Assembly (NCBI GenBank): GCA_019739225.1
Contig: JAHHDT010000003.1
Coordinates: 186,001 to 250,000, forward strand
Reading direction: 5' to 3'
Source of the DNA: Aquamicrobium sp.
Lineage (GTDB): Bacteria; Pseudomonadota; Alphaproteobacteria; Rhizobiales; Rhizobiaceae
DNA: 64,000 nt
This document shows, piece after piece, positions 517 through 18,051 of the stretch (position 1 is its first letter; the number at the start of each line of letters is the position of its first letter). The notes beneath the pieces were generated by a model that ran no database searches, was not told where the DNA came from, and saw only the letters and a program-made list of their open reading frames with translations. The position numbers and the translations under genes are program-made.

Positions 517-3500
517 GTGCCACAGAGCCTTGCGCTCAGTGATCTGGTTGCTCCTTACTTCCTGAAGGGGCAGAACCTGAACGCCTTTCACGCGGCATTT
601 TCCGTGCTGCGCGTGGTCGAGCATGAGACGGCGAGCGACGCTTTCGGCATCTCCATCCGCGGCCGCGCCGAGTTCCAGGGCCGGCTCAGCATTCCCGGTC
701 CAAATGGCGCGCTATTCCAGTTCCGCAACGACGAGACCGATCCACCTTTCGACCCGGCGCAGCGCGACCCCGTCTTCGATCTGTCGGAGACGAGCATCGG
801 CTTCGAGCTGCATGTGCCGCGTACCGCGTCCACGATCATTGCGGCGGGCGCGGCGCAACTTGCAGGCGACGCCAACTTTGCCGCCGCTCGCGCGGTTCTC
901 GCCGACTGGGATCCGATCCCCCTCGACGCGCCGCCATCCGACTTTCCGGCCTCGGCCTTCACGCTGGACCTGATTGTCAACGCACCGACCTTCCGGCCCG
1001 GCGGACTGCGGCCGGCGCGAATGACTGACGATGGGCTTCTGGTTCCCGACACCAATTTCAGCGAAGTGGTGCTGAATCTCCCCAAACTCCGCTTTCGCCT
1101 TGCCCACGATCAGGGTGACGGCAGGCTGCGCTTCCTGCTTTTGTCGAGCGGTGTCGAGAGCCTCGACGACCCCACTGACATTGCCACATCCGAATTCATA
1201 TCCATGGTTCCACCCTATGCGTTCGTAAACGGGACCGACATCGGCATCGGGTTCCGTGGCGGGACGCTGGACCTGTCCACCGAAAGTACCCCTCCGGACG
1301 TATTGGAGCGGATCGGAGTCGGCGACGATTGGCAGGGCATCTACCTGCCGGAACTGCGCGTGTTTGTCTCCGGCGGCCGCAACGGTTTCGCGTATCAGTT
1401 TGGTGTGCGCGATTTTCTCTTCGGCTTCGGTCCAAATGGCGGCATTTCGGGCGACTTCGAGGGCAGGATTTTCAACCAGGGCAGCGGTGACCTGACGGTG
1501 GGCGCACGCTTCTTCGACACCTCCGGCCGGAGCTTTGGCCTCCTGGAGCGGGACGGCGCGACCGCCTCCGCCGTGGTGCCGCCGATCACCCGGATGGTCG
1601 TGGACGTTGAAGGTGGGCGCACGCCCTATGCCGTTTCAGTCTCTGTCGACGGTGCGGCGCCAGCAACCGGTCGGATCTTCGAGATCGATTTGTCGGCCAA
1701 TGCCACGGCCACAATCGCGATTGCCGTATCGGATGCCACGTCGGGCGCCCCGGACAGCGCCGCGCTGACGATCGCTGTGCGCAGGGGCGATCCACGCACC
1801 ATTGTCGTCACCCCTGGCACCGCCGCTGAACCAGCCAAGCCGGCGACGATCGCTGTTGCCGCGGGCGCGAACCCGCGCATCGTCATAAAGGAGCAGAATG
1901 ATCGCTTCGTCACGCTGACCACAGAGCCTCTTGAGCGCGACGTGCGATGGTCGCTTGACGGCGGCGCCGAAACAACACCGCGACCGAATTTCACAGTCGA
2001 GGTCGTGGCCGGCGCCTCACACCAGATTCGCGCGAGCATCCCCGGCATGACGGTCCAGGCGATGCCGGTCTATTTCTATTTCGACCTCCCACCGAAGCCG
2101 GGCGCGGGCGCGGCCGAGCCACAGATCCTTGCCTCCGTGCTGCCGGAGAGCAACGACCAGGTGTGGACCAGCCTGGCGCGGGGCAGATCGCCAGGTTCTG
2201 GTCGCGAGACCGGCGGCCACCGGCCGCTGACGGGCGGCAACCATCCTGCAATCTTCGAGGCGATCGATCCCGCCGTCACGCAGATCCAAATCGTGGGGCA
2301 TGCCAGCTTCGAGGACGATGAGAGCAAGCTGGAGCACAACTACCAGCTCGCTCGCCGACGTGCGATTGCTGTACGCGAACTGATCCACCATCACTACCCT
2401 GGCCGCTTCTTGCCCAGCATAGACCCCGAGCCACTGGTCAAGGAGAGCTACGTTGCGCTTCCTGCCTGGAAGGCGGCCTGGATGACGCACAAGTCGCCTT
2501 CCGATCGTGACTGGTGGAAGGCCGAGATCAAGTTCAATCCCGACCCCAGCCGTCCGCCGCGCGCCTCTGATGCAACATTGACCCGCGATCCGTCCGGCGG
2601 TGGGACGCCGCCAGTGATATCGGTCATTGACCCGCCAGTTCCGAACCCGCCGCAGCGGCCGGACTGGTTCCGCAGCGCAGGTGTCAAGCTGCGGGTCATC
2701 GAAAGCCGCTTTGTTGCGATCCAGATCGACGGCGAGATCGATGTTCAGACGGCCGCCGAGGAAAAACTGCGCAATACCGGCCAGGTCCAAGGGCAGCCTG
2801 CCGAACGTGTTCGCACCCTGCAACGGGGTGTGCCGCTTGCGCCTGACAACCCGGGTGACGGCATCACCGCGTTCCGCTTCCTGTTGCAGGAAAACGAGAT
2901 GACCGGCGAGACGGTGGTATCGTTCTCGATCGGCGCCGACCCGTCTGACACCGATGGCCTGCTCGCCGTCGGTTGGCTTCCCGGCGAGGCACGGACGCAG
3001 AGTTTCTGGCGCGACCTGCTGGGCTCATACATCTCGTTCTGGCCGCTGCTTGCCAAAGCTGCGGACCGCGATGTCGGCTCGCCGGTCGATGCCGTGATCA
3101 CGGGGGCCGAGCTGGCCCTTCCACCATTGATCGCCGCGCTGCCATGGTTCACGGTCGAACGCGTCATCGTGCACGGTGCTGAGTATCTGGCGCGCTGGCA
3201 TGTGGCTGGCAGCGAGGGCAACGTCTTTTTCGACCTTGAGGCGTGCTGGTCGGCGTCCCTGCCTTCCGAGAATGACTGGCTTGTCCGCATCGATCCCGCC
3301 GCACCGCTCTCCGTCCGCTACAAGGCAATCGGCGTGCGGCTTTCCGACTTTGACGATGATGGTGCCCCGATCGCGCCGCGTTACGAGTTCAGGCCGGTCT
3401 TCGACAGTTCGCGCGGCTACACGATCGGCCTGCAGAACTCCGGCGGGTTGATGCTGCGCCCGCCCTTCGACCGTATCTTCAAGATACTCGGCGCGCGGCT

Positions 3501-6500
3501 CTCACGCATCAATCCGATGACCTTCGAGGTCGAGATCGGAATGGGTGTCGATTTCGGGGTCGTCTCATTCGACAGGCTGGGCATACGTGCCTATCTCGAC
3601 CAGCCCCGACCACCTGAGATCACATCCATCGGGGCACGGGTCGACATTCCCGGGGCACTCGTAGGCGACGGTTACCTGTCCATCAGCAAGACCAAGATAG
3701 GAGGCCAGATCGACCTGACGGTCCGCGCCATCGGGTTGCGCGTCGCTGGCGCGCTTGAAATCGCCGACATCTCCGAAGCCGAAGGCGGCCCAGCGACCGG
3801 GCTCTTCGTCGGCCTTGACCTCCTCCTGCCAGTCGGCATCCCGCTTGGCTCGACCGGCCTGGGCATATTCGGCTTCCGCGGCCTGTTTGGCATGCACTAT
3901 GCACGCACGCCGATCGGCGCTGACAAATCGGTTCCATCTATCGAGTGGCTGAAGGCGGCAAAGGGGCGACCGAACCTGCTCAAGGGCGAAAACGGCGTCA
4001 TTTTGTGGGAGCCGAGGATCGACCGCTGGTCGTTCGGTGTCGGGACCATAATCGGCACCATGGAAGGCGGTGTCCTCCTCAATCTTGACGGAACGCTGCT
4101 TCTGGAACTGCCGGGGCCAAACATCCTGATAGCACTCAATGCGCGTTTTCTGACACCGCCGCCAGCGATGGAAGAGGCCGGGGGCGTTGGTGGCGTCCTG
4201 GCCGTCCTGGAGATTACCCCGCAGCACATTGCGATCGGCATCTACGCCACTTACGAGATCGAGAAGCTGATCGAGATCAAGATCCCGGCGGAGGCCTTTT
4301 TTTCCACCGGCAACCTGCGCAAATGGCACTTCTACCTCGGGTCCCGGCCCGACATCCCTGGCCCTGGACCTGCAGTAGTGCGCGTGCTCGGCATCGTCGA
4401 CGGCACCGGGTATCTCATGGTGCGCGGGGAGGGGCTTCCCGCCTATAAGGCGCTGCCGGCCATTACCGGCTTCGGCATAGGCATCGGGGCCGGGGCATCG
4501 TTCATCTGGGGTGACACCGACATCGGCCTCTATCTCAAGGTCGGCGGCGGCTTCGACGCAGTCGTCGGCTTCGACCCGATGCTGATCGCCGGCACGATCA
4601 GCGTCTATGGCGAACTGCGCCTGTTCATTGTCTCGGTCGGCGCGGACGCCCACCTGACAGTAACGGTACGTGAGCAGGATGGCCCCCTGCCAGTCGCCGT
4701 TCGGGTCGACGGCAAGGCGTGCGGCCATGTCGATTTCTTCTTCTTCGAGATCAGCGAATGCGTGTCGATCTCTTTCGGAACGCCTGGGATCGAACCGAAC
4801 GTGCCGGGACTGATCGGCAAGGTGGCGCTCAAGAGCCGTTCGCCCGCATTGACCCAGGGAACCGGCGTCGACCGTCCCATCGACGGCAGTCTGGGCGATG
4901 CCCATGAGAGCGTCGGCGTGCCGGCGGCCGATGCGCCGCTGCCGGTGGTGCCGATTGATTCCATCCCTGTCATCACCATGCTGGCGCCGCCGGTGATCGA
5001 GGGCGCCGCCTTCCTCGGCACGACGCTCGCACCGCCCCCGAACTTGGACATGACGGACAACGGCTTCGTCGATCGCGGCGGGGAGCGCTATCGCTACGGG
5101 CTGCAGGTCCTCGAACTCGAACGCATCGCGCCGGACGGGTCGGTGATCGACCCGCCCGTGCTCGGCATCGGAACGCCGACGCGCTGGTGGACGCAGCAGG
5201 GTGCGACGGGCGATCCCTCGGCAGCGCAACTTGCGTTGCTGACATGGGACCTCGACCCCGCGCCCAAGGCCATCGAGACCAGCGACAAGCGCACCGAGAC
5301 GATCCGCGACCGCTGGCAGACGGTGTGCGACGACGCCGCGCCGCCGGCCGCCGTGCTGTGGACGTTCCGCTTCGAACCGCTCGGCCCGAGCACGTCCGGC
5401 TGGGATCTTGCCGGCATCGCCTGGCCAGACCCGGACGGCACGCGGCGGTCCGGGACGGCAGACGCCAGGCTCTTCGTGCACGAGAAATGGCGCAGCGGCA
5501 TCGCCTGGGTGGACGCCGCACGCGGCATCGTGCCGGCGATGGTGGTGGGAGGTGCAGTTCCCTGCATCCGCCGCACGCGCCCGCTGCGTGACCTGGCCGA
5601 GATCGTGCGTGTCGGCGGCCGCGGTCCGGTCATGCGCGAGGAGGGCGCAGGTGGGCGGGACGGTTTCTCGCTTGCGCCAGACGACACGGTCCTGGCAGCA
5701 CTTGTGGGCTCGGATGAGGTCAAGCCTTTCAGGGTTCCGGAGACTTTGCACGCCAAGGCGCTTGCCGACATGACGGCAAGGCCGCAGCGCGACCAATTCG
5801 CGGCGATAGCCGCGCTCGGCCGCGGCGAGGAGGTCTCTCGGGCTGACATCCTGGGGGCATTTTCGCCGGTCGGCACGTTGGTCGCGGGCGAAAAACGCGC
5901 ATGCGAAGCGCGGGTACTGCAATCGCCTCAGCTTGACGACGGGACCCTCGTGCGCTTCGCCGGCCCGCTGAAGGAAAAGCTCGTCAAGGAAGCGTTGGAG
6001 GAGGCCGGCATCGTGCACGGGCCACTGGACGACACGCTCGTCCTGGAGACCGCAGGGTTCGACCGCTTGCGCCTGCTGCTGTTCCTCACGCCGATCGACG
6101 AGGCGGCGACGATCGTCATCCGCGTGCTCGACGAGCAAGGCAATGAGCTGGAATCGCGGCCCGTCACCTTCGACGATCTCGTGCCCCCGCGCGACCTCCC
6201 CGAGGAATGGACCAGGACTGACATGCCGTGGGCGGCCGGAATCACCGACGTGTTCGCCTTCCTGGAGGCGGAGAAGCGCCTCGGCCGCTACCGCGCGGCC
6301 CTGGTCGAACTCGGCCCACATGAAAAGGCCGCTCGGGTTGAGATCGGCGTGAAGCGCTCCGATCCGCAGCTTCGTCCGTTCCTGCTGCCCTACTATCTCG
6401 CCGCCATCGAACTGCTGCGCCTTTCCGAGAGGCTGCGCTTCGACCACGACACCACCACGATCGACCGCGAGCGGGAGATCGTGACCGAATCGCTCGGGCC

Positions 6501-7665
6501 GGCGAGCACCGACAACGCCTTCCTCTTCCCGTCCTCGCTCTATCGCTGCCGTCTCGGCTGGGCCGGGACCCGCAAGAGTTCCGGCAAGACCCGACAGGGC
6601 GAGCAGAGCTTCTGGTTCCGCACCGATGCCGAGGCACCGGCAAGGCTGGACTCGTTCGTGCTGATGACCTCGCCGATGGAAGGCGAGACGCACTATTTCG
6701 GCGGCGAACCACCGCGCCTCGTCTTCGCCACCGCCGACATCGATCGTCTCTACGGCGCCTACGGCAAGGAGCTGAAAGTCCGCTTGCAGGCGGCTTCGGG
6801 GCGGCACCCGCCGGGGCAGGACGGATCGGCCGGACAGCTCGACATCTCGGCCGCGACGCTCGCCGGTGCGGGCGCGCTGGTGCTGTCGCCGTTCGAGGAC
6901 GCGCTCGTCGGCGTCCTCGACGGGCAGTGCATCCCGATCGACGGCGGCCGGACGCGCCAGACAGTGGTCGTGATCCCGATACCGCTGGAGCCTTTCACCG
7001 ACTACATCATGGACGTGGTGGCGGTGCCGGTCGGTCAGCATGCGACGCACGAGACACCGTTCATCTACCGTCGCCACTTCTCCACCGGCGGTCATGCCAC
7101 GATGACGGATTTCGGCGTTTCGCTCGGCGGGCTGACAGTCGGCCACCGTGCCGTGCAGGCCGGCATGACCATGACGCATCTGGCGCCGTTTGCCGGCCGT
7201 GCCCCGATGGGCCAGGAACTCGACGAGGCTTTTGCCCGCGCCGGGCTCGATGTCGACGGAGCGCCGCGGACGCCGAAGGTGACGGTGCTATGGGAGCCCG
7301 CCCCCGGCGGCAGCCGACCGACGGCCATACTCGTCGATGCGGGCGAGCCGTTGTCGCGTGCCAGGCTCTATCCCGAGAGCGTGCCCGACCCGGATGGGCT
7401 CCCTGGCACGAGGCGCTGGAAACTTGTTGAGAAGGAATGGCTGGGCTTCCAGCCGGCGGCCGCAAGTGCGGGCCTGATTGAAGGTGAGCCTGTGATTGCC
7501 CCCGGCGGCCAACGTGCATTGATACTGCTCAGACCCGGCGCGCTCGGCAGCCGCATCCAGCTTGAACTGGTCCGTCGACCGTTTTCCGAACCCTATCTGG
7601 CGGTTGCCGAGGAGCGCAGGACTGTCGTCGACCTGCAGCTTTCCCAGCCGCCGTGGGAAGAGTGA
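517..7665 (+). CDS. Giant beta-rich protein with OmpA-like segment, function unknown
   Basis: This 2382-residue protein is the first gene of a three-gene operon. The GTG start is preceded by GGAG at good spacing, and the N-terminus (MPQSLALSDLVAPYF) is not a signal peptide. Residues about 585-630 read like an OmpA/MotB peptidoglycan-binding core: IQIVGHASFEDD, followed by NYQLARRRAIAVREL. The segment is embedded mid-protein rather than C-terminal as is usual. Residues about 980-1425 are a long run of alternating amphipathic, glycine-rich strands, loosely reminiscent of DUF6603-type repeats (inference). The last third has more beta-rich modules without recognised catalytic motifs. The next gene starts 7 bases after the stop. 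A structural or surface-assembly role is possible, but nothing in the sequence fixes a function. Confidence 0.8.
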   Translation: MPQSLALSDLVAPYFLKGQNLNAFHAAFSVLRVVEHETASDAFGISIRGRAEFQGRLSIPGPNGALFQFRNDETDPPFDPAQRDPVFDLSETSIGFELHVPRTASTIIAAGAAQLAGDANFAAARAVLADWDPIPLDAPPSDFPASAFTLDLIVNAPTFRPGGLRPARMTDDGLLVPDTNFSEVVLNLPKLRFRLAHDQGDGRLRFLLLSSGVESLDDPTDIATSEFISMVPPYAFVNGTDIGIGFRGGTLDLSTESTPPDVLERIGVGDDWQGIYLPELRVFVSGGRNGFAYQFGVRDFLFGFGPNGGISGDFEGRIFNQGSGDLTVGARFFDTSGRSFGLLERDGATASAVVPPITRMVVDVEGGRTPYAVSVSVDGAAPATGRIFEIDLSANATATIAIAVSDATSGAPDSAALTIAVRRGDPRTIVVTPGTAAEPAKPATIAVAAGANPRIVIKEQNDRFVTLTTEPLERDVRWSLDGGAETTPRPNFTVEVVAGASHQIRASIPGMTVQAMPVYFYFDLPPKPGAGAAEPQILASVLPESNDQVWTSLARGRSPGSGRETGGHRPLTGGNHPAIFEAIDPAVTQIQIVGHASFEDDESKLEHNYQLARRRAIAVRELIHHHYPGRFLPSIDPEPLVKESYVALPAWKAAWMTHKSPSDRDWWKAEIKFNPDPSRPPRASDATLTRDPSGGGTPPVISVIDPPVPNPPQRPDWFRSAGVKLRVIESRFVAIQIDGEIDVQTAAEEKLRNTGQVQGQPAERVRTLQRGVPLAPDNPGDGITAFRFLLQENEMTGETVVSFSIGADPSDTDGLLAVGWLPGEARTQSFWRDLLGSYISFWPLLAKAADRDVGSPVDAVITGAELALPPLIAALPWFTVERVIVHGAEYLARWHVAGSEGNVFFDLEACWSASLPSENDWLVRIDPAAPLSVRYKAIGVRLSDFDDDGAPIAPRYEFRPVFDSSRGYTIGLQNSGGLMLRPPFDRIFKILGARLSRINPMTFEVEIGMGVDFGVVSFDRLGIRAYLDQPRPPEITSIGARVDIPGALVGDGYLSISKTKIGGQIDLTVRAIGLRVAGALEIADISEAEGGPATGLFVGLDLLLPVGIPLGSTGLGIFGFRGLFGMHYARTPIGADKSVPSIEWLKAAKGRPNLLKGENGVILWEPRIDRWSFGVGTIIGTMEGGVLLNLDGTLLLELPGPNILIALNARFLTPPPAMEEAGGVGGVLAVLEITPQHIAIGIYATYEIEKLIEIKIPAEAFFSTGNLRKWHFYLGSRPDIPGPGPAVVRVLGIVDGTGYLMVRGEGLPAYKALPAITGFGIGIGAGASFIWGDTDIGLYLKVGGGFDAVVGFDPMLIAGTISVYGELRLFIVSVGADAHLTVTVREQDGPLPVAVRVDGKACGHVDFFFFEISECVSISFGTPGIEPNVPGLIGKVALKSRSPALTQGTGVDRPIDGSLGDAHESVGVPAADAPLPVVPIDSIPVITMLAPPVIEGAAFLGTTLAPPPNLDMTDNGFVDRGGERYRYGLQVLELERIAPDGSVIDPPVLGIGTPTRWWTQQGATGDPSAAQLALLTWDLDPAPKAIETSDKRTETIRDRWQTVCDDAAPPAAVLWTFRFEPLGPSTSGWDLAGIAWPDPDGTRRSGTADARLFVHEKWRSGIAWVDAARGIVPAMVVGGAVPCIRRTRPLRDLAEIVRVGGRGPVMREEGAGGRDGFSLAPDDTVLAALVGSDEVKPFRVPETLHAKALADMTARPQRDQFAAIAALGRGEEVSRADILGAFSPVGTLVAGEKRACEARVLQSPQLDDGTLVRFAGPLKEKLVKEALEEAGIVHGPLDDTLVLETAGFDRLRLLLFLTPIDEAATIVIRVLDEQGNELESRPVTFDDLVPPRDLPEEWTRTDMPWAAGITDVFAFLEAEKRLGRYRAALVELGPHEKAARVEIGVKRSDPQLRPFLLPYYLAAIELLRLSERLRFDHDTTTIDREREIVTESLGPASTDNAFLFPSSLYRCRLGWAGTRKSSGKTRQGEQSFWFRTDAEAPARLDSFVLMTSPMEGETHYFGGEPPRLVFATADIDRLYGAYGKELKVRLQAASGRHPPGQDGSAGQLDISAATLAGAGALVLSPFEDALVGVLDGQCIPIDGGRTRQTVVVIPIPLEPFTDYIMDVVAVPVGQHATHETPFIYRRHFSTGGHATMTDFGVSLGGLTVGHRAVQAGMTMTHLAPFAGRAPMGQELDEAFARAGLDVDGAPRTPKVTVLWEPAPGGSRPTAILVDAGEPLSRARLYPESVPDPDGLPGTRRWKLVEKEWLGFQPAAASAGLIEGEPVIAPGGQRALILLRPGALGSRIQLELVRRPFSEPYLAVAEERRTVVDLQLSQPPWEE

Positions 7666-7672
7666 GATCGCC

Positions 7673-10600
7673 ATGGAAGAGGAATTCATCCTCGATCCCG
7701 ATCGCTTCCTGCTTGCCGCCGCGCTGGTAGACTGGGCCGCGCTCGCACGCCGCGACGAGACCCATATGACGGCGCTCAAGCAGAGCCGCGAGACTTTGGT
7801 GCGAGGAGTGCAGCTGCGCTGGCTGCTGTCACCGGAGCTTGGTTACCCGACCGAACCCTTTGAGGTTTGGCGGCGGCCGGCGCTCAACGTGCAGCTGGAA
7901 AAGGAGCTGCCGGTCGAGGACGAGACACTGATCGTCCAGACGTTGTTCAACTGGCGGGCCTTCGCAGCGCCGTCCCCAATGGTTTTTATTCGTGCAACGC
8001 TCCAAGTGACGGCACCGCAGGCCAATGTCATTGCTTTTGCCGGCGCGCCCTTCGGCTCGGCTGTCGTCGGCATCGAGACCGTGTCGAGCGGCTTCAGGAC
8101 GATCTCGTTTTCCGCACCGCAGATTGCCTGCCTGGTGCTTTTTGACGGGGTCGAACTCCTGCGCTGGGTCGGGATTGACGGCCAGGACGCCAACCGGGGT
8201 GAGTGGACGCTCATCGAGCGCGTTGGGCTGCCCGTCGACCAGGGCGAGTGGAGCGGCGTATTCGGCCTCGACGCGGATCAAGGGCCAGCGGGCATGCCTA
8301 TGCCCCCGGTAGACGCCGCGCTGTCGCGCTTTTCCCGGGGCGCTGCGCCGTTCGGATGGCAGAGCGCCTTCGCGCCAGGCCGACTTGCCCCCCACTGGCG
8401 AAAAGCAGACCCAAAAGCCTTCCTGCGGGTTATGGAGGACAACGTCCTTGACGGGCTGCTGGAGATGGTGACCACCCGCGCGCCGAACCTGCACGGCACG
8501 CTGAAACGCTCGGTCGCCCTGGCCGCCGAAGGCGGAGGGGAAGCTGCCGCGGCTACCTTCTCGCTGCTTGGCACGCTGATGTTCGCTGCTGCGACCGATC
8601 CTGTCGCAAGCCTGCTTGCCGGTTTTGGAACTGCAGTCGAAGAGATAGACATCCCGCCGATCTCCGTTCGCGACGTCGAATATTTCAACGATCCCAACAG
8701 AAGCGACAGCGATTTCCGCGTCACCGCGCGTTTTGCCAACGGGCTCGACGGTCAGTCCGACAAGATCGCCTTTGCTGCCATCGCGCTGTCGCCGCGCCGC
8801 GTCGTCCCGCCACCACCACCGGCCAATCTCGGTATTCTGCAGGAAGGGATGCGCTCGCCGCCCACGACCGATGGTGCATGGCGACCGGTGATGCGGTTGG
8901 GATGGGATCGGCTGCCGCCCGGTCTGCCGCTTCGATCGGCCGCCTACGCCCATGCTCGCAGCGTCGGCGGGGCCGGCACCGCGCAGGCGCTTATCCTGCC
9001 GCGCAGGGGCGACGAGGCGCTTCAGCCGATCGGCGTGACGACCGGCAGCGACGTACCTGCGAACGTGCCGCAACTGCGCGCCTCGGACGACAGCTTCGCC
9101 ATACCTGGTAGTCCGGCCGTCGTTCCGCTTCTCTACGGCGTCGCCCATCAGGACATATTCGGTGTCTGGAGCGAGTGGCGCACCGCCCCGATCAGTGTGC
9201 AGGAACCCCCCGTGCAGATCGTGCCTGTCTTGTCTGCGTCGCTCGACACTACGGCCTCCGCAGGACCCTGTCCGGCCGTGCTGACGGTGGAGTTTGCCTG
9301 GGACTGGGCAGCGCGCTCACCGGCCGATATCCGTTTCGCAGGGGTGCTCTACGCTCAGGCCCGTCGCGGCGATCCGCCGCTCGGGCCAGCGGCACCAATC
9401 GGCCTGCAGAGGAGCCTTGGCGGTGCTGCGGGTATGCCATTCGAGGTCAGGTTCGACCCCGCCGGCAACGCGGCCGTCGATGCCGGCGGCACGCTCCAGC
9501 ATCTGAGTGAGGACGGTCGCGACATCCTTGCTGGCCCGCTCAACGTTGCCGGCCCCCGCCGCTACCGGCTTCGCGTCGACGGCTTCTCACTCGATTTCAA
9601 CGCCGCCGGGCACATCGGATTGGCGCTGTCGGCAATGGCGATCGAGAGGCGCCCCCCCGGCCGTGCTGGTGGTTGGAGTGCACCGCGTATCGCTTCGGCG
9701 TCGGACCCGAGGCCACCCGTGATCGCGACAGAACACGAAGATGTGCTGCTCGCCAGTATGGAAGACGCGGCCGGGCGACATCATGCGCTTGTGACATGGC
9801 CCTCGGCACCTGGAGCGGCCGGTTATTTCATCTATGCTGCCCAGGAGGGAAAATTACGGGCCGACTGGGGACTTGCCGGGCCGCAGCTGGAACAAACCCT
9901 GTCGCAGCGCCTTGTGGAGTTGCGAAACGCCTTTGCGGCCAATCCGGCGAAGCGCTTCTTCACCCGGCTCAACGAGACCGCAGTCAGCGCAACATCCTAT
10001 CAGGCAACGTTGCCCCGCGGCAGCAAGGAGATCCATCTTTTCCTCGTGGTCGGAATCAGCGCCGGCGGCGTGGAATCCAAATGGCCTGGTGCCGGGGATC
10101 CGATGCTGCGCAAGCGACCCATCGCCTATGCCGCGCCGCAGAAGCAGGTTCCCGACGCCCCGACATTGGAAGTCCGCCGCGCCGCAGATCCCGACAGCGG
10201 AACCGATGCCTTTCGCGCGGATCTGCGGCTCACCACACTGCCGGGGGCGACGGTCGACCGCATCGACATTCACCGCGTTCGATCTGAAGCAGCCGCGGTG
10301 GAGCTGGATACCATGGGACCGCCGGTGATGACGGTGCGTAGCGGCGAGCCGAGCTGGACAATACGTGCGCTCCCGCCGCGTGGGGCCGTGCCGGGCCAGG
10401 CGATCGGCGTCGCCAATGGCGTGGACCGGCCGGCGGGCAGCTGGTCGCCGTTTTACTACCGGGCTGTCGCATGGTCACTGCCGCGGCCCGAACGTGGCCT
10501 TCTGGGTGGACGATCGAAGCCATCGGCAGCACGCAGTGTGATCATACCGCCACCTGGCCCGCCGGACCTCCAACCGCTTGAACATTCCTGGCCCGGTGGC

Positions 10601-11356
10601 GATATTGCTCTGATCGAAATTGCGACGGCGACGCCGGCTCCTATCGAGGCCACGACGCTCGGGGCGCATCGACTGCGCGTGGAGGTAACCGGTCTTGCTG
10701 AAAACGGGCCCGGAAGCGCGCTGTTTGCGTGGCCCGAGCTTGTCGATGGCGTGCCGGCAGACGGCTCGCTCCGCGCATTGCCGGCAGCTCCTCCAGCATC
10801 CGGACAGAGTGGCATCTGGCGCGAAACGCCGGATGATAATACGCGAATTCGGCTCCGCATCGTTCGTCCGAACGTGGATACCGCGCTGTCGGTGCGGTTC
10901 CAGCTCGACGATCCTCTTGGCCGCGCGACGGAGCGCACTGTAGCGGTGCCCGCAGGTTCGCCGCTTCCGCCGCTTGCCTTCGGCGTGGTTGCCGTGAGGC
11001 GCATTGCCGGAAAGGGGTTCATCGTCCGCGCACCGATCAACCTTCCGCTCAAGGCGCCTCCGGAAGCGGGATACCGACTCAGGGCTGCGTTCCGGCCGCA
11101 CCTGGCTGTGCCAGGCCCGCTTCCGCGACCCATGGGGCGCGGGGTGACGCTCGACGTCGCGTATGCCGACGTTCCGCAATTACGCCCTCTGGAGGACCCG
11201 TTCGCCGGCACGGTCCCCCTTCCGGTGCGCCGCGAGGCCGCCGGTCGAACGGGGACGGTGCTATCCTTCTACCTGCGCGGCCATGGCGGCAGTTTGCGTG
11301 CCACCCTCGGCGGCGTGGATGGAAACCCCGCGTCGTTCATGCAGGAGGTGCCTTGA
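7673..11356 (+). CDS. Large fibronectin-type-III-like multidomain protein, function unknown
   Basis: This is the second giant gene, 1227 residues. I chose the ATG at 7673 because GGAAGAG in the end of the preceding gene gives it a ribosome-binding site; the frame is open further upstream, but only inside that gene. It has no signal peptide and no membrane segment. The N-terminus contains GYPTEPFEVWRRP. Several later stretches look like Ig/FnIII modules: for example HHALVTWPSAPGAAGYFIYA around residue 700, and further VDRIDIHRVRSE-type strands. No catalytic motif is visible. The stop is separated from the next start by a single base, indicating translational coupling and probably a shared complex. 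The family is not recognised. Confidence 0.75.
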   Translation: MEEEFILDPDRFLLAAALVDWAALARRDETHMTALKQSRETLVRGVQLRWLLSPELGYPTEPFEVWRRPALNVQLEKELPVEDETLIVQTLFNWRAFAAPSPMVFIRATLQVTAPQANVIAFAGAPFGSAVVGIETVSSGFRTISFSAPQIACLVLFDGVELLRWVGIDGQDANRGEWTLIERVGLPVDQGEWSGVFGLDADQGPAGMPMPPVDAALSRFSRGAAPFGWQSAFAPGRLAPHWRKADPKAFLRVMEDNVLDGLLEMVTTRAPNLHGTLKRSVALAAEGGGEAAAATFSLLGTLMFAAATDPVASLLAGFGTAVEEIDIPPISVRDVEYFNDPNRSDSDFRVTARFANGLDGQSDKIAFAAIALSPRRVVPPPPPANLGILQEGMRSPPTTDGAWRPVMRLGWDRLPPGLPLRSAAYAHARSVGGAGTAQALILPRRGDEALQPIGVTTGSDVPANVPQLRASDDSFAIPGSPAVVPLLYGVAHQDIFGVWSEWRTAPISVQEPPVQIVPVLSASLDTTASAGPCPAVLTVEFAWDWAARSPADIRFAGVLYAQARRGDPPLGPAAPIGLQRSLGGAAGMPFEVRFDPAGNAAVDAGGTLQHLSEDGRDILAGPLNVAGPRRYRLRVDGFSLDFNAAGHIGLALSAMAIERRPPGRAGGWSAPRIASASDPRPPVIATEHEDVLLASMEDAAGRHHALVTWPSAPGAAGYFIYAAQEGKLRADWGLAGPQLEQTLSQRLVELRNAFAANPAKRFFTRLNETAVSATSYQATLPRGSKEIHLFLVVGISAGGVESKWPGAGDPMLRKRPIAYAAPQKQVPDAPTLEVRRAADPDSGTDAFRADLRLTTLPGATVDRIDIHRVRSEAAAVELDTMGPPVMTVRSGEPSWTIRALPPRGAVPGQAIGVANGVDRPAGSWSPFYYRAVAWSLPRPERGLLGGRSKPSAARSVIIPPPGPPDLQPLEHSWPGGDIALIEIATATPAPIEATTLGAHRLRVEVTGLAENGPGSALFAWPELVDGVPADGSLRALPAAPPASGQSGIWRETPDDNTRIRLRIVRPNVDTALSVRFQLDDPLGRATERTVAVPAGSPLPPLAFGVVAVRRIAGKGFIVRAPINLPLKAPPEAGYRLRAAFRPHLAVPGPLPRPMGRGVTLDVAYADVPQLRPLEDPFAGTVPLPVRREAAGRTGTVLSFYLRGHGGSLRATLGGVDGNPASFMQEVP

Positions 11357-11357
11357 C

Positions 11358-14300
11358 ATGCTGCCTCTGATGCCTGCTCAAACCGTGCTCACCGTAAATT
11401 CTGCAGCCAACGACCTGCAGGCGCGCGGTCTCGAGGCGATGGGGCTGGCTGCGCCTGCGCTAAGCCCGCTCTGGGCGGGGTCGAACCCGGCGCAGGGCGA
11501 CTACGATCCGACCGCACTGACCCTGCGCCTTGCGTCCCCGCGCGCACCTTTCATGGGCATCGCAACCTGGCTTGCCTCGCCCGCCATCTATAGTGACGTC
11601 AGCGGTCAATCACTGACGGGTCCCGCCTTCGCGCTGACGTTGCACCCGGAAGCCGCTCGTCGGCTTCAGATGCTGGTCGACCTGCGCACCGGGACCAACG
11701 TCTATCCCGTGCCCGTTGCTATGCTTCTGCGCGGCATCGCCCCGCCGTCTCCGCTGCGGCCCCCTCAAATCTATCTCGCAGGAGAAACATTGGACGACGG
11801 TAGCGCCACTGTCAGCTTCCACGATGCGCGCGGGCTTCCCATAGATCCAATCGCGATGGCGCATTTGTGGAACGACCTGATTGTCTTTCGCGCCGCGCTA
11901 CAGACTGCAAACACCTTCGCCGGCACACCCGCAGACCCTGGCGGCATCGGCTCGATGCTGGGCTTCGCCGCCGGCGATCTTTTCCACGTCGTAGATCCGC
12001 ACGGCTGGCGCTATCAGGGCACACGCCCGGCGGCCACGTTGCGTGTACTTGACGCAGCGGGAGATGCGGTACGCGATCTCGCGAGCGTCGGTCTCGAGAC
12101 GCTCGCCGCCGGTGAGACGTTCGGCCGCTCGAATGCGGATGATGCCGCGATACCGGCCAACACTGTTCCTCCGCTGCGTTGGGGGTTCGCGCGCAACGGG
12201 ACGCTCGGCCAGGCACGACTTGCCGCACCTGCGCTGCCTGCGACAGTGGGGCTCGGCCGTCGCTTCTTCCGGATCATGGCCGTCGATCTGGATTGGCATA
12301 TACTCGGCAATCGCACCACGGCGCCGGTCGCGAGCGTCACCGGTGCACCGATCCCGGCGGAGGACGGCGGCACGCCGACATTTCTGCATCCTGTCGTGCG
12401 AGACAGGACGCCGGGCTTCGCCTATGTCGCCGATGGCGTGGATGTGCTGGGCGCGATGGCAGCGATGACGCAGGGCTTCGGCAATCCCAACGACCAGTTG
12501 TTCGCCGCCGCGGTTTCGCCGACTCTGGACCCGGCGGTCCTTGCGCCGCCTGCACCGGGAGCGCAGTGGCCGGCCTTTCCGCCCGCCGCCGCGGCCTCGG
12601 AGATCGTGCAGACCGCGGACCCGCGTCAGGGGCTCACCGCATCGTGGCGCGCGCCGGGCGACGGCCCGGGCGCGGTGCAGGACGTGGTGCTGACCGTCGA
12701 TGGAGCCCAATTGCCGCTCGGTGCTCATCTTCGCGCCTATCCGCGCCGCTTTCTCGAAATCGCCTCGATCGGTGAGCAGCCATCCTTCGTGCGCGGCGAT
12801 GGCGGCGCGACCATCGTACAGGGAGGTCCCGCCAGGCTTCTGCTGGTCAATCCGTTCGGCCTATCGCCGGCCGAGCCGCATCCATCACCGGCGATCCTGA
12901 TCGTCGACCTGGTGGTCGTTTCGCGCAGCGGTCGGCGCCGCATGTATTCAGGCGTCAGGCTGGAAGTCGCGGCCGGACCGGACGCTTTTGTACCGGACAC
13001 CAGTTTCGGCGGCGTGCCATTGCTCGCGCCGGGCACACTGGTCGCCACAATTCTCGACGGTTTCATGACACGGTCGATCGCACCGGTACCGGCTTTTGGT
13101 CTGCCGCGTCCGCCCGCCTCTGCCGGACCTCCGACGAGCCTTACCGAACTTTTGCGACGGCTGGCGAGCGACGAGCAGCCGCGGCAGGGACCGCGCCTGC
13201 CGACGCAGGCCCGCTTCGACACGCAATTCGTGATCGGCGTGTCGCCTGCACCTCCTGCAGGCAATCCGAATCCACCCTATAATTGGCAGGCGGTGACGAC
13301 TGGTGCGCGATTGACGCCGGAGAGTCGCCACGCCCGGCCCGAACTCGCCAATGCCGGCCATCCCGCCGGACCGGACGTCTTTGCCTCTGGAACGGCTTTT
13401 TCGGGCGCGCTGGCTCGCGACGCCGCACTGCATGCGATCAAGCGCGCGCAGCCGATCTTCATTCCGACCGGGGGCACGAACTTCCGTGGCTGGCTCGCCA
13501 CGACGATGGATGACAAATGGAATGATCCGCCCGGCCCACCGCCCGGTGGCACGGTGGCGGCGGCTGTTCTGGAAACGATTGCGCCCTCCTGCGACACGCC
13601 CGAGCTTGCTGCTGCACCCGCGCCCGAGCCCGGTGCAACCCTGCAGAACCTGATCAATCAGATCGCCGCCGACCTCGGCATCCAGCCGCCGACCGTGACA
13701 CTTGGCAATGAGCAGCGCGTCGTGCCCATCGTTCAGCGCGAGATCGCAACCGCGCGCTCGGGCCAGCGCGATGCGTTGTGGTCGCTGGTTCGTGCAATCG
13801 GTCAGGCGCGCGAGTTGATCTACGTGGAAGGCCCCGCCTTTGCGCGCACGTCACGGCCCGATGGGCCGCCACGCCTAGACGAGATCGATCTCGTAGCCCT
13901 TATAGCGGCGCGGATGGTAGCCAATCCTCGTCTCAAGCTCATCGTGTGCGTACCGCGCGAGGGCGATTTTGCGCGCGAGCGCCCGCACTGGACAGTCACC
14001 GCATTGCGGCATCGCCGCGAGGCGCTGGCAGACGTGATTTCGGTCGACCCTCGCCGGGTCGCCGCGTTCCACCCGATCGGGTACCCCGGCCGCGCCGCGG
14101 CCATCCGCACAACCACGGTGATCGTGGACGACGTGTACTGCCTCAACGGGACGAGCCATTTCCGGCGCCGCGGAATGACGTTCGACGGCGGGCTCGACGT
14201 CGCGTCGATCGATACCGCGATAGGCGAGGGGTATTCGGCCGGCATCGCTAACTTCCGGCAACGCCTGATGGCTGCCAAGCTCGGCGTGAACCCAGCAGCG

Positions 14301-14528
14301 ACGGTCGCTGCGGCAACAGCGCTATGGATCAGGCTCGCAACGCTGGAAAGCGCCTTCGATGTTGTATTCGACCTGCTCGCAGGTGGTGGGGCGGGACGGC
14401 TCCAGCCTATATGGGCCGGAGCAGAGCCCGACAACATCATCCCGCAATCGGACGCCGTGGTCGATCCCGACGGCATTGATACGGATTCGTTCCTTCAACT
14501 CTTCGCGGCCCTCATCGTAGAAGGCTGA
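11358..14528 (+). CDS. Large protein with degenerate phospholipase-D-like C-terminal half
   Basis: This is the third giant gene, 1056 residues. The ATG at 11358 follows AGGAGGTG at ideal spacing, one base after the preceding stop. The first 780 residues are beta-rich and unrecognised. Residues about 800-970 follow the order of a phospholipase-D half-domain. A strand resembling PLD 'yIyieNqyf' (RELIYVEGPAF) is followed by a helix, LKLIVCVP, and then TTTVIVDDVYCLNGTSHFRRR where PLDs have HxKxxxxD...GSxNxxxRS. The catalytic His and Lys are replaced by Arg917 and Thr919, while Asp924 is kept. Only one HKD-like site is evident, so I infer a catalytically dead binding or scaffold domain. It is the last gene of the operon. 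Confidence 0.75.
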   Translation: MLPLMPAQTVLTVNSAANDLQARGLEAMGLAAPALSPLWAGSNPAQGDYDPTALTLRLASPRAPFMGIATWLASPAIYSDVSGQSLTGPAFALTLHPEAARRLQMLVDLRTGTNVYPVPVAMLLRGIAPPSPLRPPQIYLAGETLDDGSATVSFHDARGLPIDPIAMAHLWNDLIVFRAALQTANTFAGTPADPGGIGSMLGFAAGDLFHVVDPHGWRYQGTRPAATLRVLDAAGDAVRDLASVGLETLAAGETFGRSNADDAAIPANTVPPLRWGFARNGTLGQARLAAPALPATVGLGRRFFRIMAVDLDWHILGNRTTAPVASVTGAPIPAEDGGTPTFLHPVVRDRTPGFAYVADGVDVLGAMAAMTQGFGNPNDQLFAAAVSPTLDPAVLAPPAPGAQWPAFPPAAAASEIVQTADPRQGLTASWRAPGDGPGAVQDVVLTVDGAQLPLGAHLRAYPRRFLEIASIGEQPSFVRGDGGATIVQGGPARLLLVNPFGLSPAEPHPSPAILIVDLVVVSRSGRRRMYSGVRLEVAAGPDAFVPDTSFGGVPLLAPGTLVATILDGFMTRSIAPVPAFGLPRPPASAGPPTSLTELLRRLASDEQPRQGPRLPTQARFDTQFVIGVSPAPPAGNPNPPYNWQAVTTGARLTPESRHARPELANAGHPAGPDVFASGTAFSGALARDAALHAIKRAQPIFIPTGGTNFRGWLATTMDDKWNDPPGPPPGGTVAAAVLETIAPSCDTPELAAAPAPEPGATLQNLINQIAADLGIQPPTVTLGNEQRVVPIVQREIATARSGQRDALWSLVRAIGQARELIYVEGPAFARTSRPDGPPRLDEIDLVALIAARMVANPRLKLIVCVPREGDFARERPHWTVTALRHRREALADVISVDPRRVAAFHPIGYPGRAAAIRTTTVIVDDVYCLNGTSHFRRRGMTFDGGLDVASIDTAIGEGYSAGIANFRQRLMAAKLGVNPAATVAAATALWIRLATLESAFDVVFDLLAGGGAGRLQPIWAGAEPDNIIPQSDAVVDPDGIDTDSFLQLFAALIVEG

Positions 14529-14826
14529 ACGACACCAAGGCGATAAAGGGTCGAGGGCGCCCGGCACGCACAAAAAGCGGTGGGCTTTCCCAGGGATGGT
14601 CGGCTTTGTCTTCCCAGCCGATTGGAGCTGCAAAGCCAGCTCCAGGTCCACCCCGAACTCTCGACTGGGGGCCGGCCATCCTGGGTTGAAACCCGCGCGG
14701 ATCACCCTGGTGATCGCGGCAGGTTCTGTCACTCCATTCCATTCCGCTCGCGACCCGCGCCGCGAAACGGCACGTCCAGCGCTCGATCTCCAGGCGATTG
14801 CGGAACCAGATCGGTCGTCTTTCGTT
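14529..14826 (+). other. Intergenic region with a hairpin, between giant operon and sensor kinase
   Basis: About 300 bases lie between the stop of the third giant gene and the probable kinase start. A perfect 7-bp stem (GGAGCTG at 14624-14630, CAGCTCC at 14637-14643, 6-base loop) could end the giant operon, although no U-tract follows. The kinase frame is open from 14596, but the translated stretch before about 14827 is low-complexity and unlike any domain, so I treat it as non-coding. Confidence 0.4.
14802..14826 (+). promoter_or_regulatory. EcfG-type general stress promoter (GGAAC-N16-CGTT)
   Basis: GGAAC at 14802-14806 and CGTT at 14823-14826 are separated by exactly 16 bases. This matches the consensus recognised by the alphaproteobacterial general-stress sigma factor EcfG/SigT (GGAAC-N16/17-CGTT). 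It sits immediately before the kinase gene. A start site 6-8 bases downstream would fall after the ATG at 14827 and would favour the in-frame TTG at 14857, which follows a GGGGGGAG tract. Confidence 0.5.
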
Positions 14827-17800
14827 ATGTTGCGCGCAAAAAAATTGGGGGGAGCGTTGGGCGCGAACTCAACTCCTGGCTACCGCAGCACTAACAGGGA
14901 CGACGCTGTTCTCGCTGCTTTGGGCGATAGAATCCGTGAGCTCAGCGATCCGGATGATCTGGCCTATGCAGCCGCCGAAATTCTAGGGAATGCCTTACAG
15001 GTCAGCCGCGTGGGATACGGCGAGATCGACATTGGCCGCGAGACAATCACGATCCAGCGGGACTGGAACGCTCCTGGCATCAAGAGCCTCGCTGGCACGC
15101 TTCATTTCCGCGATTATGGCTCCTACATCGATGACCTCAAGCGAGGTGAAACCGTCGTTTTCAACGACGCCGCGCAGGATCCAAGGAGCGAAGCCGGTGC
15201 GGAGGCGCTTAAGGCGATCAGCGCCCAGGCGGTGGTCAATATGCCTGTCACCGAACAGGGGGGAACCGTCGCCCTGCTCTATCTCAACCACGCTACTCCC
15301 AGAGCATGGACCGACAATGAGATTGCACTGATCTCAGAGGTGGCGCAGCGCACAAGGACTGCGGTTGAACGCCTACGCGCAGAGGAGGCCCTGCGGCAGA
15401 ATGCCGAGCAACTCGCCTTTCTCGACCATCTCGGGAAGGCTGCAGGTGTTGCGACCGACGCCAGTGCCCTAATGGATGTGACGACGCGGCTGGTCGGCGA
15501 GCATTTGGCCGTGTCCATTTGCGCCTATGCGGACATGGAGCCTGACCAGGACCATTTCACCATCCGTGGGGACTGGAGCGCGCCAGGATCGGCGAGCATC
15601 GTTGGATATTACAGGCTCGCGGATTTTGGGGAGATGGCGGTTTCGATGCTGGGCTCCGGCCGGCCACTCGTAATTCACGACAACAGCAAGGAGTTGCCGC
15701 CGCACGAGGCAAAGACCTTTCAGTCGATCGGCATTGCGGCCACCATCTGCATGCCGCTGGTGAGGGACGGCCGCCTTACAGCATTGATGGCGATCCACGA
15801 CAAGCACCCCAGGGTGTGGAGCGAACGTGAACTCGGATTGCTGAAGGAGGTTACCGAGCGCTGCTGGGCTCATATCGAGCGGATTCGCTCGCAAGAAGCG
15901 GAGCGGGCCAGTGAGGAGCGACTGCGCCTTGCCGCCGATGCGGCGGCCATCGGCATCTGGGACTACGACCCAGTCTCCGAGCGGCTCCAGTGGGATGACC
16001 GGTGCAAGGCACTCTTTGGCTTGCCTCCAGAAGCGGACGTCAGCTACGAGGGCTCATTCTTGGCGGGGCTCCATCCCGCGGATCGAGAGCGCGCAGATGA
16101 CGCTGTGCGAAGCGCGCTCACTCCCGACGGACCATCCGGCTTCGAGATTGAGTATCGGACGATTGGTCTGCACGACAAGGTGGAACGGTGGATTGCCGCA
16201 AAGGGGAGCGCGCACTTCAGCGAGGGCCGGGCGGTCCGCTTCATCGGCACCGTTATCGACATCACGTCACGCAAGCGCATCGAGCGTCACCTCCAGATCA
16301 TGAACGACACCGGCGCGGCTGTGGCCGCCGAACTCGAGCTCGACCGTATTGTCCAGATCGTCACCGATGCCGGCGTCGAACTGTCAGGGGCCCAGTTCGG
16401 AGCATTTTTCTACAATGTTCTAGACGACCGAGGCGGCAGCTACATGCTTTACGCGCTGTCCGGCGCCCCTCGATCGGCTTTCGAAAACTACCCGATGCCT
16501 CGCGCGACTGCGGTTTTCGAACCTACATTCGTTGGAAGCGGAGTCGTGCGCTCGCACGACATCCTGCTTGATCCGCGCTACGGCAAGAATTCACCGCATC
16601 ATGGCATGCCCAAAGGACACCTACCGGTCCGGTCCTATCTTGCCGTCCCGGTAAAGTCCCGGTCAGGTGAGGTTCTAGGCGGCTTGTTCTTCGGACATGC
16701 TAATCCCGGGATGTTCCGTCGTGAGCACGAGAACGCGCTTCTCGGGCTTGCAGGTCATGCCGCGACTGCAATCGACAATGCCCGACTATTCTCTTCCGCA
16801 AGGAAGGAGATCGAGGAGCGACGGCGGGCCGAGGATGCCCTGCAGGCGCTGAATGCAACCCTTGAACAGCGAGTACTGGAAGAAGTCGCGGAACGCAGCA
16901 AAGCGGAGGAACATCTTCGCCAAGCCCAAAAGATGGAGGCAGTAGGCCAACTGACAGGCGGCATCGCTCATGACTTTAACAACATGCTCGCCGTAGTGAT
17001 CAGCGGTCTGAACCTCGCCCAGAGGAAGGTGGCCAAGGGTGAGACCGATATCGGCCGGTTCATAGAAGCGTCAGTCGATGGGGCGCAGCGTGCCGCTGAG
17101 CTGACGAAGCGTCTTCTTGCGTTCTCGCGTCAGCAGCCGCTCGCGCCGAAGCGCATCAACGTCAACCGGCTGGTTGGAGATATGAGCGAACTGCTTACCC
17201 GGACACTTGGCGAGACCATTCGGGTCGAGACGGTGCTCGGTGCAGGGCTGTGGCACGTTGAGGTTGATCCTGCTCAATTGGAAAGTGCTCTGCTGAACTT
17301 ATCGGTGAACGCTCGAGACGCCATGCCGAGCGGTGGAAAGCTCACTATCGACACCGCTAACGCACATGTGGACGCCCGCTATGCCCGCGAGTACTCCATA
17401 GCCGAAGGCCAGTATGTCCTCTTGTGTGTGACCGATACCGGGACGGGAATGACGCCGGATGTGATCGAGAAGGCTTTCGATCCTTTCTACACGACCAAAA
17501 GTGTCGGGAAAGGCACTGGCCTCGGGCTAAGCCAAGTTTACGGCTTTGTTCGCCAGTCGGGCGGGCACGTCAAACTCTACTCAGAGGTGTCTGTCGGAAC
17601 CACGGTGAAGATCTATCTTCCACGGTCGCTCTCCACCGCTTCCGACCAAGTTGACGTCCCCACGCTCGCAATCCACGGGGGCCAATCAACCGAAGTGATC
17701 ATGGTGGTGGAAGATGAGGACCGCGTCCGCGCCATGGCGGTCGAGGCCCTCAGAGAGCTGGGCTACTCCGTTGTGGAAATGCGCGGCCCGAAGGAGGCCC

Positions 17801-18051
17801 TATCGGCCATCCAGTCCGGCAATGTGCCCGACCTCCTCTTTACCGATGTCGTGATGCCGGACATGTCCGGTCGTGACTTGGTCGACCAGGTAAAGGCGCT
17901 GAAGCCAGATATGAGGGTTCTTTACACGACCGGCTATACGCGGAATGCCATCGTTCACAACGGCACGCTCGACTTCGGTACCGAGCTCCTCTCGAAACCG
18001 TATACAATCGAAGAACTTGCAGCGAAGGTAAGGGCAATCCTGGATCGATAG
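14827..18051 (+). CDS. Hybrid sensor histidine kinase with GAF/PAS domains and C-terminal receiver
   Basis: From the ATG at 14827 this is a 1074-residue soluble hybrid kinase. The order is two N-terminal GAF domains (roughly 25-185 and 200-350), a PAS domain (about 370-490; [20 protein letters not shown]) and a third GAF (about 500-640). A short coiled coil follows, then a HisKA dimerisation domain with [12 protein letters not shown] (phospho-acceptor His715). The HATPase has an N box ([12 protein letters not shown]), G1 (DTGTGM) and G2 ([10 protein letters not shown]). The receiver has IMVVEDED and phospho-acceptor Asp1007 in [11 protein letters not shown], with a conserved SKPY lysine. No transmembrane segment is seen, so it senses a cytoplasmic signal. 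The start is uncertain: 14596 and TTG 14857 are also in frame, and the EcfG-type promoter favours the last. Confidence 0.9.

What the first reader, a model, noticed from the sequence alone, without database searches (positions are those of the whole stretch)
517..14528. Tightly coupled operon of three giant proteins (2382, 1227, 1056 aa) of unknown function
Three consecutive genes with gaps of 7 and 1 bases fill 14 kb. They encode large beta-rich proteins without signal peptides or transmembrane segments. Modules seen are an OmpA-like segment, FnIII-like strands and a dead PLD-like half. This does not look like an NRPS/PKS, a T6SS, a known toxin complex or an adhesin. The stoichiometric coupling suggests that they assemble into one large complex.
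Basis: partly seen in the sequence, partly recalled or inferred. Interest (0 to 1): 0.8.

Follow-up and report, generated by a model that had tools for sequence, protein, structure and literature searches.

The report
Mobile module of three giant proteins
Three adjacent genes encode giant proteins of unknown function that many unrelated bacteria carry in the same order and pass on as one unit; one of the three looks like a phospholipase that has lost its active site, so this is probably an undescribed molecular machine.

Summary
In detail: P1 (2382 aa), P2 (1227) and P3 (1056) lie intact at 517-14528 with gaps of 7 and 1 bases, and none reaches a curated Pfam or NCBIfam cut-off or a PADLOC model.

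The set is not unique to this genome. A scan of one genome each of 84,980 species gave 67 relatives of the P1 core, by record title in eight phyla. P2 follows P1 in 67 of 71 loci examined; P3 is present in 38 of 71. Distances among the three correlate at r 0.98-0.99, the P1 tree mixes phyla, and dN/dS is 0.07-0.20. No gene recurs beside it. So it is a self-contained, selected, mobile module.

Likely reading (inferred): one complex acting on lipid or envelope surfaces. Complex formation and function are unproven.

The parts
517..7665 (+). P1, 2382 aa: core giant protein of the module
   Evidence: Open frame; homologues in Rhizobium, Paracoccus and 67 scan loci
1444..2076 (+). P1 residues 310-520: beta-rich, Ig-like-looking strands (tentative)
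   Evidence: AlphaFold strands, block pLDDT 74-92 with one dip to 40; weak PDB profile hits to phage decoration proteins, E 0.06-0.08
2194..2436 (+). P1 residues about 560-640: OmpA-like domain
   Evidence: Profile match to the OprF OmpA domain E 2.2e-6; sub-threshold Pfam OmpA hits at the matching place in the window, R. tropici and Paracoccus proteins; Arg615 kept in 58 of 58 aligned, Asp at 597 in 14 of 57
3517..4737 (+). P1 residues 1001-1407: divergent DUF6603 region, long antiparallel beta strands, the best conserved part of P1
   Evidence: hhalign to DUF6603 proteins Prob 95, E 3.9e-8; Pfam DUF6603 in 3 of 19 P1 proteins; strands; conservation
4720..4761 (+). Co-varying cysteine pair C1402 / C1415 (likely disulfide)
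   Evidence: Both in 57, neither in 8, one alone in 0 of 65 P1 proteins
7673..11356 (+). P2, 1227 aa: regular partner of P1, no recognisable family
   Evidence: Present in 67 of 71 loci, gap to P1 -104 to 43 bases in 62; no Pfam family at E 0.1 in any of 20 members
11358..14528 (+). P3, 1056 aa: about 300-aa N-terminal part plus pseudo-phospholipase D
   Evidence: Present in 38 of 71 loci; AlphaFold pLDDT 79.8, pTM 0.88
12276..14474 (+). P3 residues about 307-1039: whole two-lobed PLD fold
14106..14129 (+). P3 residues 917-924: place of the second HKD motif; His and Lys are replaced, Asp kept
   Evidence: 26 of 26 P3 sequences that reach this place lack His and Lys; 0 of 28 have HxKxxxxD anywhere

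Best explanation
Shown by sequence: P1-P2(-P3) is a self-contained, horizontally transferred gene module kept together by selection. Inferred: its products form one giant complex that works on lipid or cell-envelope surfaces, probably outside the reducing cytoplasm and reached without a Sec signal (by lysis or an unknown route). P1 would be the scaffold: an OmpA-like domain for envelope contact and a DUF6603-type region of long amphipathic strands that could make a barrel, pore or lipid-covering belt. P2 would be the regular structural partner. P3, where present, would bind a phosphodiester ligand such as a phospholipid head group with a PLD fold that can no longer cut it, acting as a recognition or targeting subunit.
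For: Conserved order: P2 in 67 of 71 loci; 62 P1-P2 gaps with median -1; 33 P2-P3 gaps with median 10 (near relatives included). Matching distances, r 0.986 / 0.987 / 0.984. Purifying selection, dN/dS 0.068 / 0.197 / 0.152. Six-row set of three phyla around the window with 100/100 support. P3 PLD fold and lost catalytic motif. OmpA-like and DUF6603-like regions. Long amphipathic strands: 25 core strands picked from the DSSP list, mean length 13. Co-varying cysteines. No recurring neighbours on either side.
Against: No complex was predicted or measured. The P1 model has pTM 0.46 and its porin/ApoB matches have rmsd 6.5-13.9, so barrel closure is unknown. Strand amphipathicity is similar in the core and in the N-terminal strands, so it does not single out a membrane role. 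The OmpA ligand Asp is replaced by Ser in 38 of 57, so peptidoglycan binding is doubtful. The cysteines could bind metal instead. With no signal peptide the proteins may simply be cytoplasmic. P3 is absent from many loci.
Confidence: 0.3

Rival explanations
1. A lysis-released, toxin-like complex against neighbouring cells or hosts: P1 inserts a beta structure into a target membrane, P3 recognises the target, P2 links them.
For: No Sec signals by hydropathy, large sizes, long amphipathic strands; patchy spread; neighbours in a few genomes are conflict-type genes: VgrG-like or PAAR-like by eye (L037, L068), hemopexin (L085, L088).
Against: No toxic enzyme domain was found in P1-P3; no toxin or immunity gene recurs beside it; the PLD motif is lost.
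Confidence: 0.2
2. A cell-surface structure (adhesin, S-layer-like or matrix protein set) assembled without Sec.
For: Beta-rich giants with an OmpA-like domain; weak Foldseek similarity to S-layer and porin chains.
Against: No signal peptide by hydropathy and no exporter that recurs; distribution across Gram-negative and Gram-positive phyla; those Foldseek rows have rmsd above 15.
Confidence: 0.15
3. An intracellular conflict or anti-phage system.
For: Mobile, patchy and self-contained; by-eye caspase-type genes beside two loci (L033 upstream; L046 downstream), Gabija-like genes beside L059, a metallo-beta-lactamase-fold gene beside L031.
Against: No PADLOC match; no nucleotide-binding or sensor domain found in P1-P3; neighbours differ from locus to locus.
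Confidence: 0.12
4. An accessory or cargo of contractile injection systems (eCIS or T6SS).
For: Pvc16_N (eCIS cap, role recalled) in 15 of 51 module-bearing genomes, in Actinomycetota 8 of 19 against 15 of 149 sampled; a lone sheath gene beside two loci (L029 by Pfam, L031 by eye).
Confidence: 0.06

Closest known systems
DUF6603 (Pfam PF20248)
   Same: P1 residues 1001-1407 align colinearly with it (hhalign E 3.9e-8); a Kribbella P1 exceeds the Pfam cut-off; DUF6603 genes also lie in runs of large genes.
   Different: Window P1 itself does not reach the model. Classical DUF6603 loci carry other partners (A11- and A13-type genes) that hhalign did not relate to P2 or P3.
Phospholipase D superfamily (human PLD1/2, plant PLD alpha, bacterial PLD)
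   Different: No HxKxxxxD motif in 28 P3 sequences, two of which end before the second motif; extra 300-aa N-terminal part; operonic with P1 and P2.
FAM83 pseudo-PLD scaffolds (passages of PMC6008594 read)
   Same: PLD-like domain that mostly lacks the catalytic His; reported there to act as anchor for CK1.
   Different: One pseudo-motif, vertebrate only, no relation to giant bacterial partners. Analogy only.
OmpA C-terminal domain (Pfam PF00691)
   Same: Profile-level match and invariant Arg.
   Different: Below the Pfam cut-off; ligand Asp mostly replaced by Ser; sits inside a giant protein without signal peptide.

Membership tests
DUF6603 | Window P1 reaches the Pfam gathering score | tested here: not met
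   No DUF6603 hit at E up to 1
DUF6603 | Family-level homology of the P1 core | tested here: met
   3 of 19 P1 proteins match at E 0.1 or better, best 2e-11; hhalign Prob 95, E 3.9e-8
Phospholipase D superfamily | Two-lobed PLD fold | tested here: met
Phospholipase D superfamily | Catalytic HxKxxxxD motif | tested here: not met
   0 of 28 P3 sequences, 26 of which reach the second motif
OmpA-like peptidoglycan-binding domain | Sequence-level homology | tested here: met
   E 2.2e-6 to the OprF domain by profile; single proteins below the Pfam cut-off
OmpA-like peptidoglycan-binding domain | Conserved Asp and Arg that bind diaminopimelate (recalled) | tested here: inconclusive
   Arg in 58 of 58, Asp in 14 of 57 aligned
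Contractile injection systems (eCIS) | Cap protein Pvc16_N encoded with the module | tested here: not met
   Absent from the own genome; in none of the 51 genomes seen beside the module
Known or candidate anti-phage systems (PADLOC 2.0) | Any component model matched | tested here: not met
   0 families at E 0.01 for P1, P2, P3 and R. tropici P1
Tc toxin complexes | Homology to TcA/TcB/TcC | tested here: inconclusive
Phage structural proteins | Match in phage records, viral contigs or PHROGs | tested here: not met
   No phage record with P1; PHROGs best E 0.39; no viral contig with P1 core or P3
One physical complex of P1, P2 and P3 | Direct interaction | not testable with these tools
   Only single-chain prediction available

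The most novel reading that the evidence does not exclude
P1-P2-(P3) and the separate giant DUF6603 operons are two branches of one undescribed class of bacterial giant-protein machine, built around a DUF6603 beta scaffold, released without Sec, with interchangeable recognition subunits (a pseudo-phospholipase D here), and spread across phyla by gene transfer.
Probability: 0.25. Interest if true: 0.85.

Novelty: categorically new. Interest (0 to 1): 0.62.

Why it matters
About 14 kb and 4,665 codons are kept under selection and passed between phyla as a unit, so they must pay their way, yet no family model, no solved relative by sequence (the OmpA-like domain apart) and no open paper that I found explains them. 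A bacterial pseudo-phospholipase D kept across phyla and a co-varying cysteine pair in a protein without an evident signal peptide give direct handles. If it is a new machine, it would also give a first lead on DUF6603.

Tried and rejected
Phage or prophage origin: no match in phage records with P1 and none in viral contigs with P1 core or P3. Foldseek against viral models gave only low-grade hits for P1.

Conserved neighbours: clustering of 3,020 flanking ORFs from 73 loci gave no family in more than 9 loci, and that one looked by eye like ABC transporters in general. Many raw clusters of GC-rich ORFs looked like wrong-frame artefacts, so gene calls by codon usage were used after that. These loci hold about 7 kb upstream but little beyond P3, so I fetched about 11 kb downstream of P3 in 17 of 20 genomes located (the other three lie near a contig end): among 158 called genes no family recurs in more than 3 of 17.

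Link to eCIS: see rivals.

P2 as kin of the giant HLHW-type genes of DUF6603 operons: both have a GxHLRW / GIHLHW motif near the N-terminus, but hhalign gave E 0.15 over 13 columns. Rejected for now. P3 against the same genes, and P2 and P3 against the A13 type: nothing.

Not folded, so folds untested: all of P2, P1 1-309 and P1 1501-2382. The N-terminal 300 residues of P3 were modelled but hardly touched by the search.

Literature: DUF6603 occurs in 0 held papers. Five other searches (listings only) showed no description of such a module. Only passages of PMC6008594 were read. Preprints and most subscription papers are not in the library.

Full report
OBSERVATION. The three frames stand as described: P1 517-7665, P2 7673-11356, P3 11358-14528, on the + strand. 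The window lies at 186001-250000 of a 548.5-kb contig. Scans of the three proteins gave no hit above a curated cut-off in Pfam or NCBIfam, none in PADLOC at E 0.01 and nothing below E 0.39 in PHROGs. Hydropathy, the only test available, shows no TM segment or signal peptide in the window proteins. Among homologues (window included), 6 of 69 P1, 0 of 60 P2 and 1 of 31 P3 reach a 12-residue mean of 2.0 in the first 45 residues.

DISTRIBUTION. P1 was found in 1 of 199 sampled genomes of the window's family, the window's own; the other collections add R. tropici and Mesorhizobium species. With a two-row profile, 3 of 385 class genomes had a match: the own genome, one relative of the core (G201) and one short weak hit (E 8e-4) over the OmpA region. 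Plasmid records gave Rhizobium tropici CIAT 899 (all three genes) and Paracoccus aminophilus pAMI4 (P1 and P2). A scan of one genome each of 84,980 species with the P1 core (A4) gave 284 pattern matches, of which 67 were confirmed. The record titles name Pseudomonadota, Actinomycetota, Myxococcota, Acidobacteriota, Bacteroidota, Cyanobacteriota, Gemmatimonadota and Chloroflexota (several are metagenome bins). The scan works through short exact peptides, so 67 is a lower bound.

GENE ORDER. One search examined 71 loci (the 67, the window, L004, L005, L026; R. tropici and some genera occur more than once). P2 follows P1 in 67. The four without it are L026 and L092 (other giant neighbours), L075 (contig end) and L034 (a broken MAG locus). 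P3 is present in 38. Of 30 loci with P1-P2 only, four end at P2 (L030, L043, L079, L093) and one has 797 bases left (L080); the other 25 have 2.7 kb or more and show no P3. P1-P2 gaps (62 loci with single frames) run from -104 to 43, median -1; P2-P3 gaps (33 loci) from -10 to 666, median 10.

CO-INHERITANCE AND TRANSFER. Pairwise distances correlate at r 0.986 for P1/P2 (59 loci), and 0.987 for P1/P3 and 0.984 for P2/P3 (28 loci). A tree of 65 P1 cores needs 14 changes of phylum label where 6 is the least possible (shuffled mean 28.1). The window sits in a 100/100-supported set of six with Sphaerotilus, Leptothrix, two Actinomycetota and a cyanobacterium, far from R. tropici. Long branches are present and paralogues could split groups, so transfer is the likeliest reading, not proof. 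The sister locus in Mesorhizobium sediminum (L028) shares one 15-kb block at 96% identity that ends at window 14530, just after P3.

SELECTION. Against L028, dN/dS is 0.068 (P1), 0.197 (P2) and 0.152 (P3). In L028 12 of 13 indels break the frame, mostly by one base: sequencing error or early decay, which I cannot tell apart.

P2. No family at E 0.1 and no solved relative. Its function is open.

NEIGHBOURS. No gene family recurs beside the module, upstream or in about 11 kb downstream of P3 in 17 genomes. Single cases include hemopexin genes (L085, L088), a sheath gene (L029), a metallo-beta-lactamase-fold gene (L031), a giant subtilase (L092) and a small PG_binding_1 gene (L086) (all by Pfam), and by eye VgrG- and PAAR-like genes (L037, L068) and caspase-type genes (L033, L046). 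Pvc16_N, an eCIS cap family (role recalled), is in 15 of 51 module genomes: Actinomycetota 8 of 19 against 15 of 149 sampled, at least one of them a module genome, Pseudomonadota 2 of 22 against 10 of 200, others 5 of 10; groups assigned from record titles. The own genome has none. So the module is not an eCIS part.

DUF6603 OPERONS. DUF6603 proper occurs in 8 of 349 phylum genomes, always in open frames of 1,565-3,518 codons. In those eight loci and L097 (where the DUF6603 gene has 948 codons), two more gene types recur beside it (A11-type, 1,136-1,343 aa where complete, with VPIDVQAL- and GIHLHWALP-like motifs; A13-type, 501-708 aa) (L130's A11-type gene judged by eye). hhalign does not relate them to P2 or P3. 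Two different partner sets around one scaffold domain make a broader class plausible, not proven.

VERDICT. Conserved, mobile, selected three-gene module: about 0.95. Products in one complex: about 0.6. The specific lipid/envelope mechanism: 0.3. The parts have kin, but no described kind of system that I tested fits; I therefore rate it categorically new, subject to the limits of an open-access library.

Noticed in passing
window 14596-18051 +: Large gene (1,151 aa, start more likely 14857) with GAF, PAS, histidine-kinase and receiver sequences by eye; missing at the same place in Mesorhizobium sediminum, where the shared block ends at window 14530.
   Followed up: partly
window 3565-7179 -: Open frame of 1,204 codons antisense to P1; probably a side effect of high G+C.
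   Followed up: no
L002 14679-15680 - and 16650-17186 - (upstream of the window): Two transposase-like genes (by eye) upstream of the module; L028 lacks both stretches while sharing the DNA around them.
   Followed up: partly
L028 7030-21067: The Mesorhizobium sediminum copy is split into pieces; 12 of 13 indels against the window break the frame, mostly single bases.
   Followed up: partly
L029 1467-3167 -, L031 3051-4742 - and 4902-6038 +: Lone phage-sheath gene (Pfam in L029, by eye in L031) and a metallo-beta-lactamase-fold gene (Pfam in L031) beside the module in Sphaerotilus and Leptothrix.
   Followed up: partly
L130-L134, L127-L129, L097: Conserved operons of giant genes around classical DUF6603 (up to about 3,290 aa), with two further uncharacterised gene families and sometimes a protease near the end (subtilase by Pfam in L097; one metalloprotease-like gene by eye in L138).
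   Followed up: partly
L092 263-19197 and L026-L027: P1 relatives of about 2,000 aa flanked by other giant proteins; in L092 one is a 2,663-aa subtilase and one has weak P2 likeness, E 9e-5 in a three-locus search.
   Followed up: partly
L086 and L090, just upstream of P1: Pair of small genes shared by two Mesorhizobium genomes, one a PG_binding_1 protein (Pfam tested in L086).
   Followed up: no
L033 617-6029 and L154 1852-5874 (downstream of L046): Caspase-type genes, by eye, beside the module in two Actinomycetota that are far apart on the P1 tree.
   Followed up: no
genomes of L033, L046, L051, L053, L055, L065, L067, L088: Excess of Pvc16_N (eCIS cap) among module-bearing Actinomycetota (8 of 19 against 15 of 149), not adjacent and not size-matched.
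   Followed up: partly
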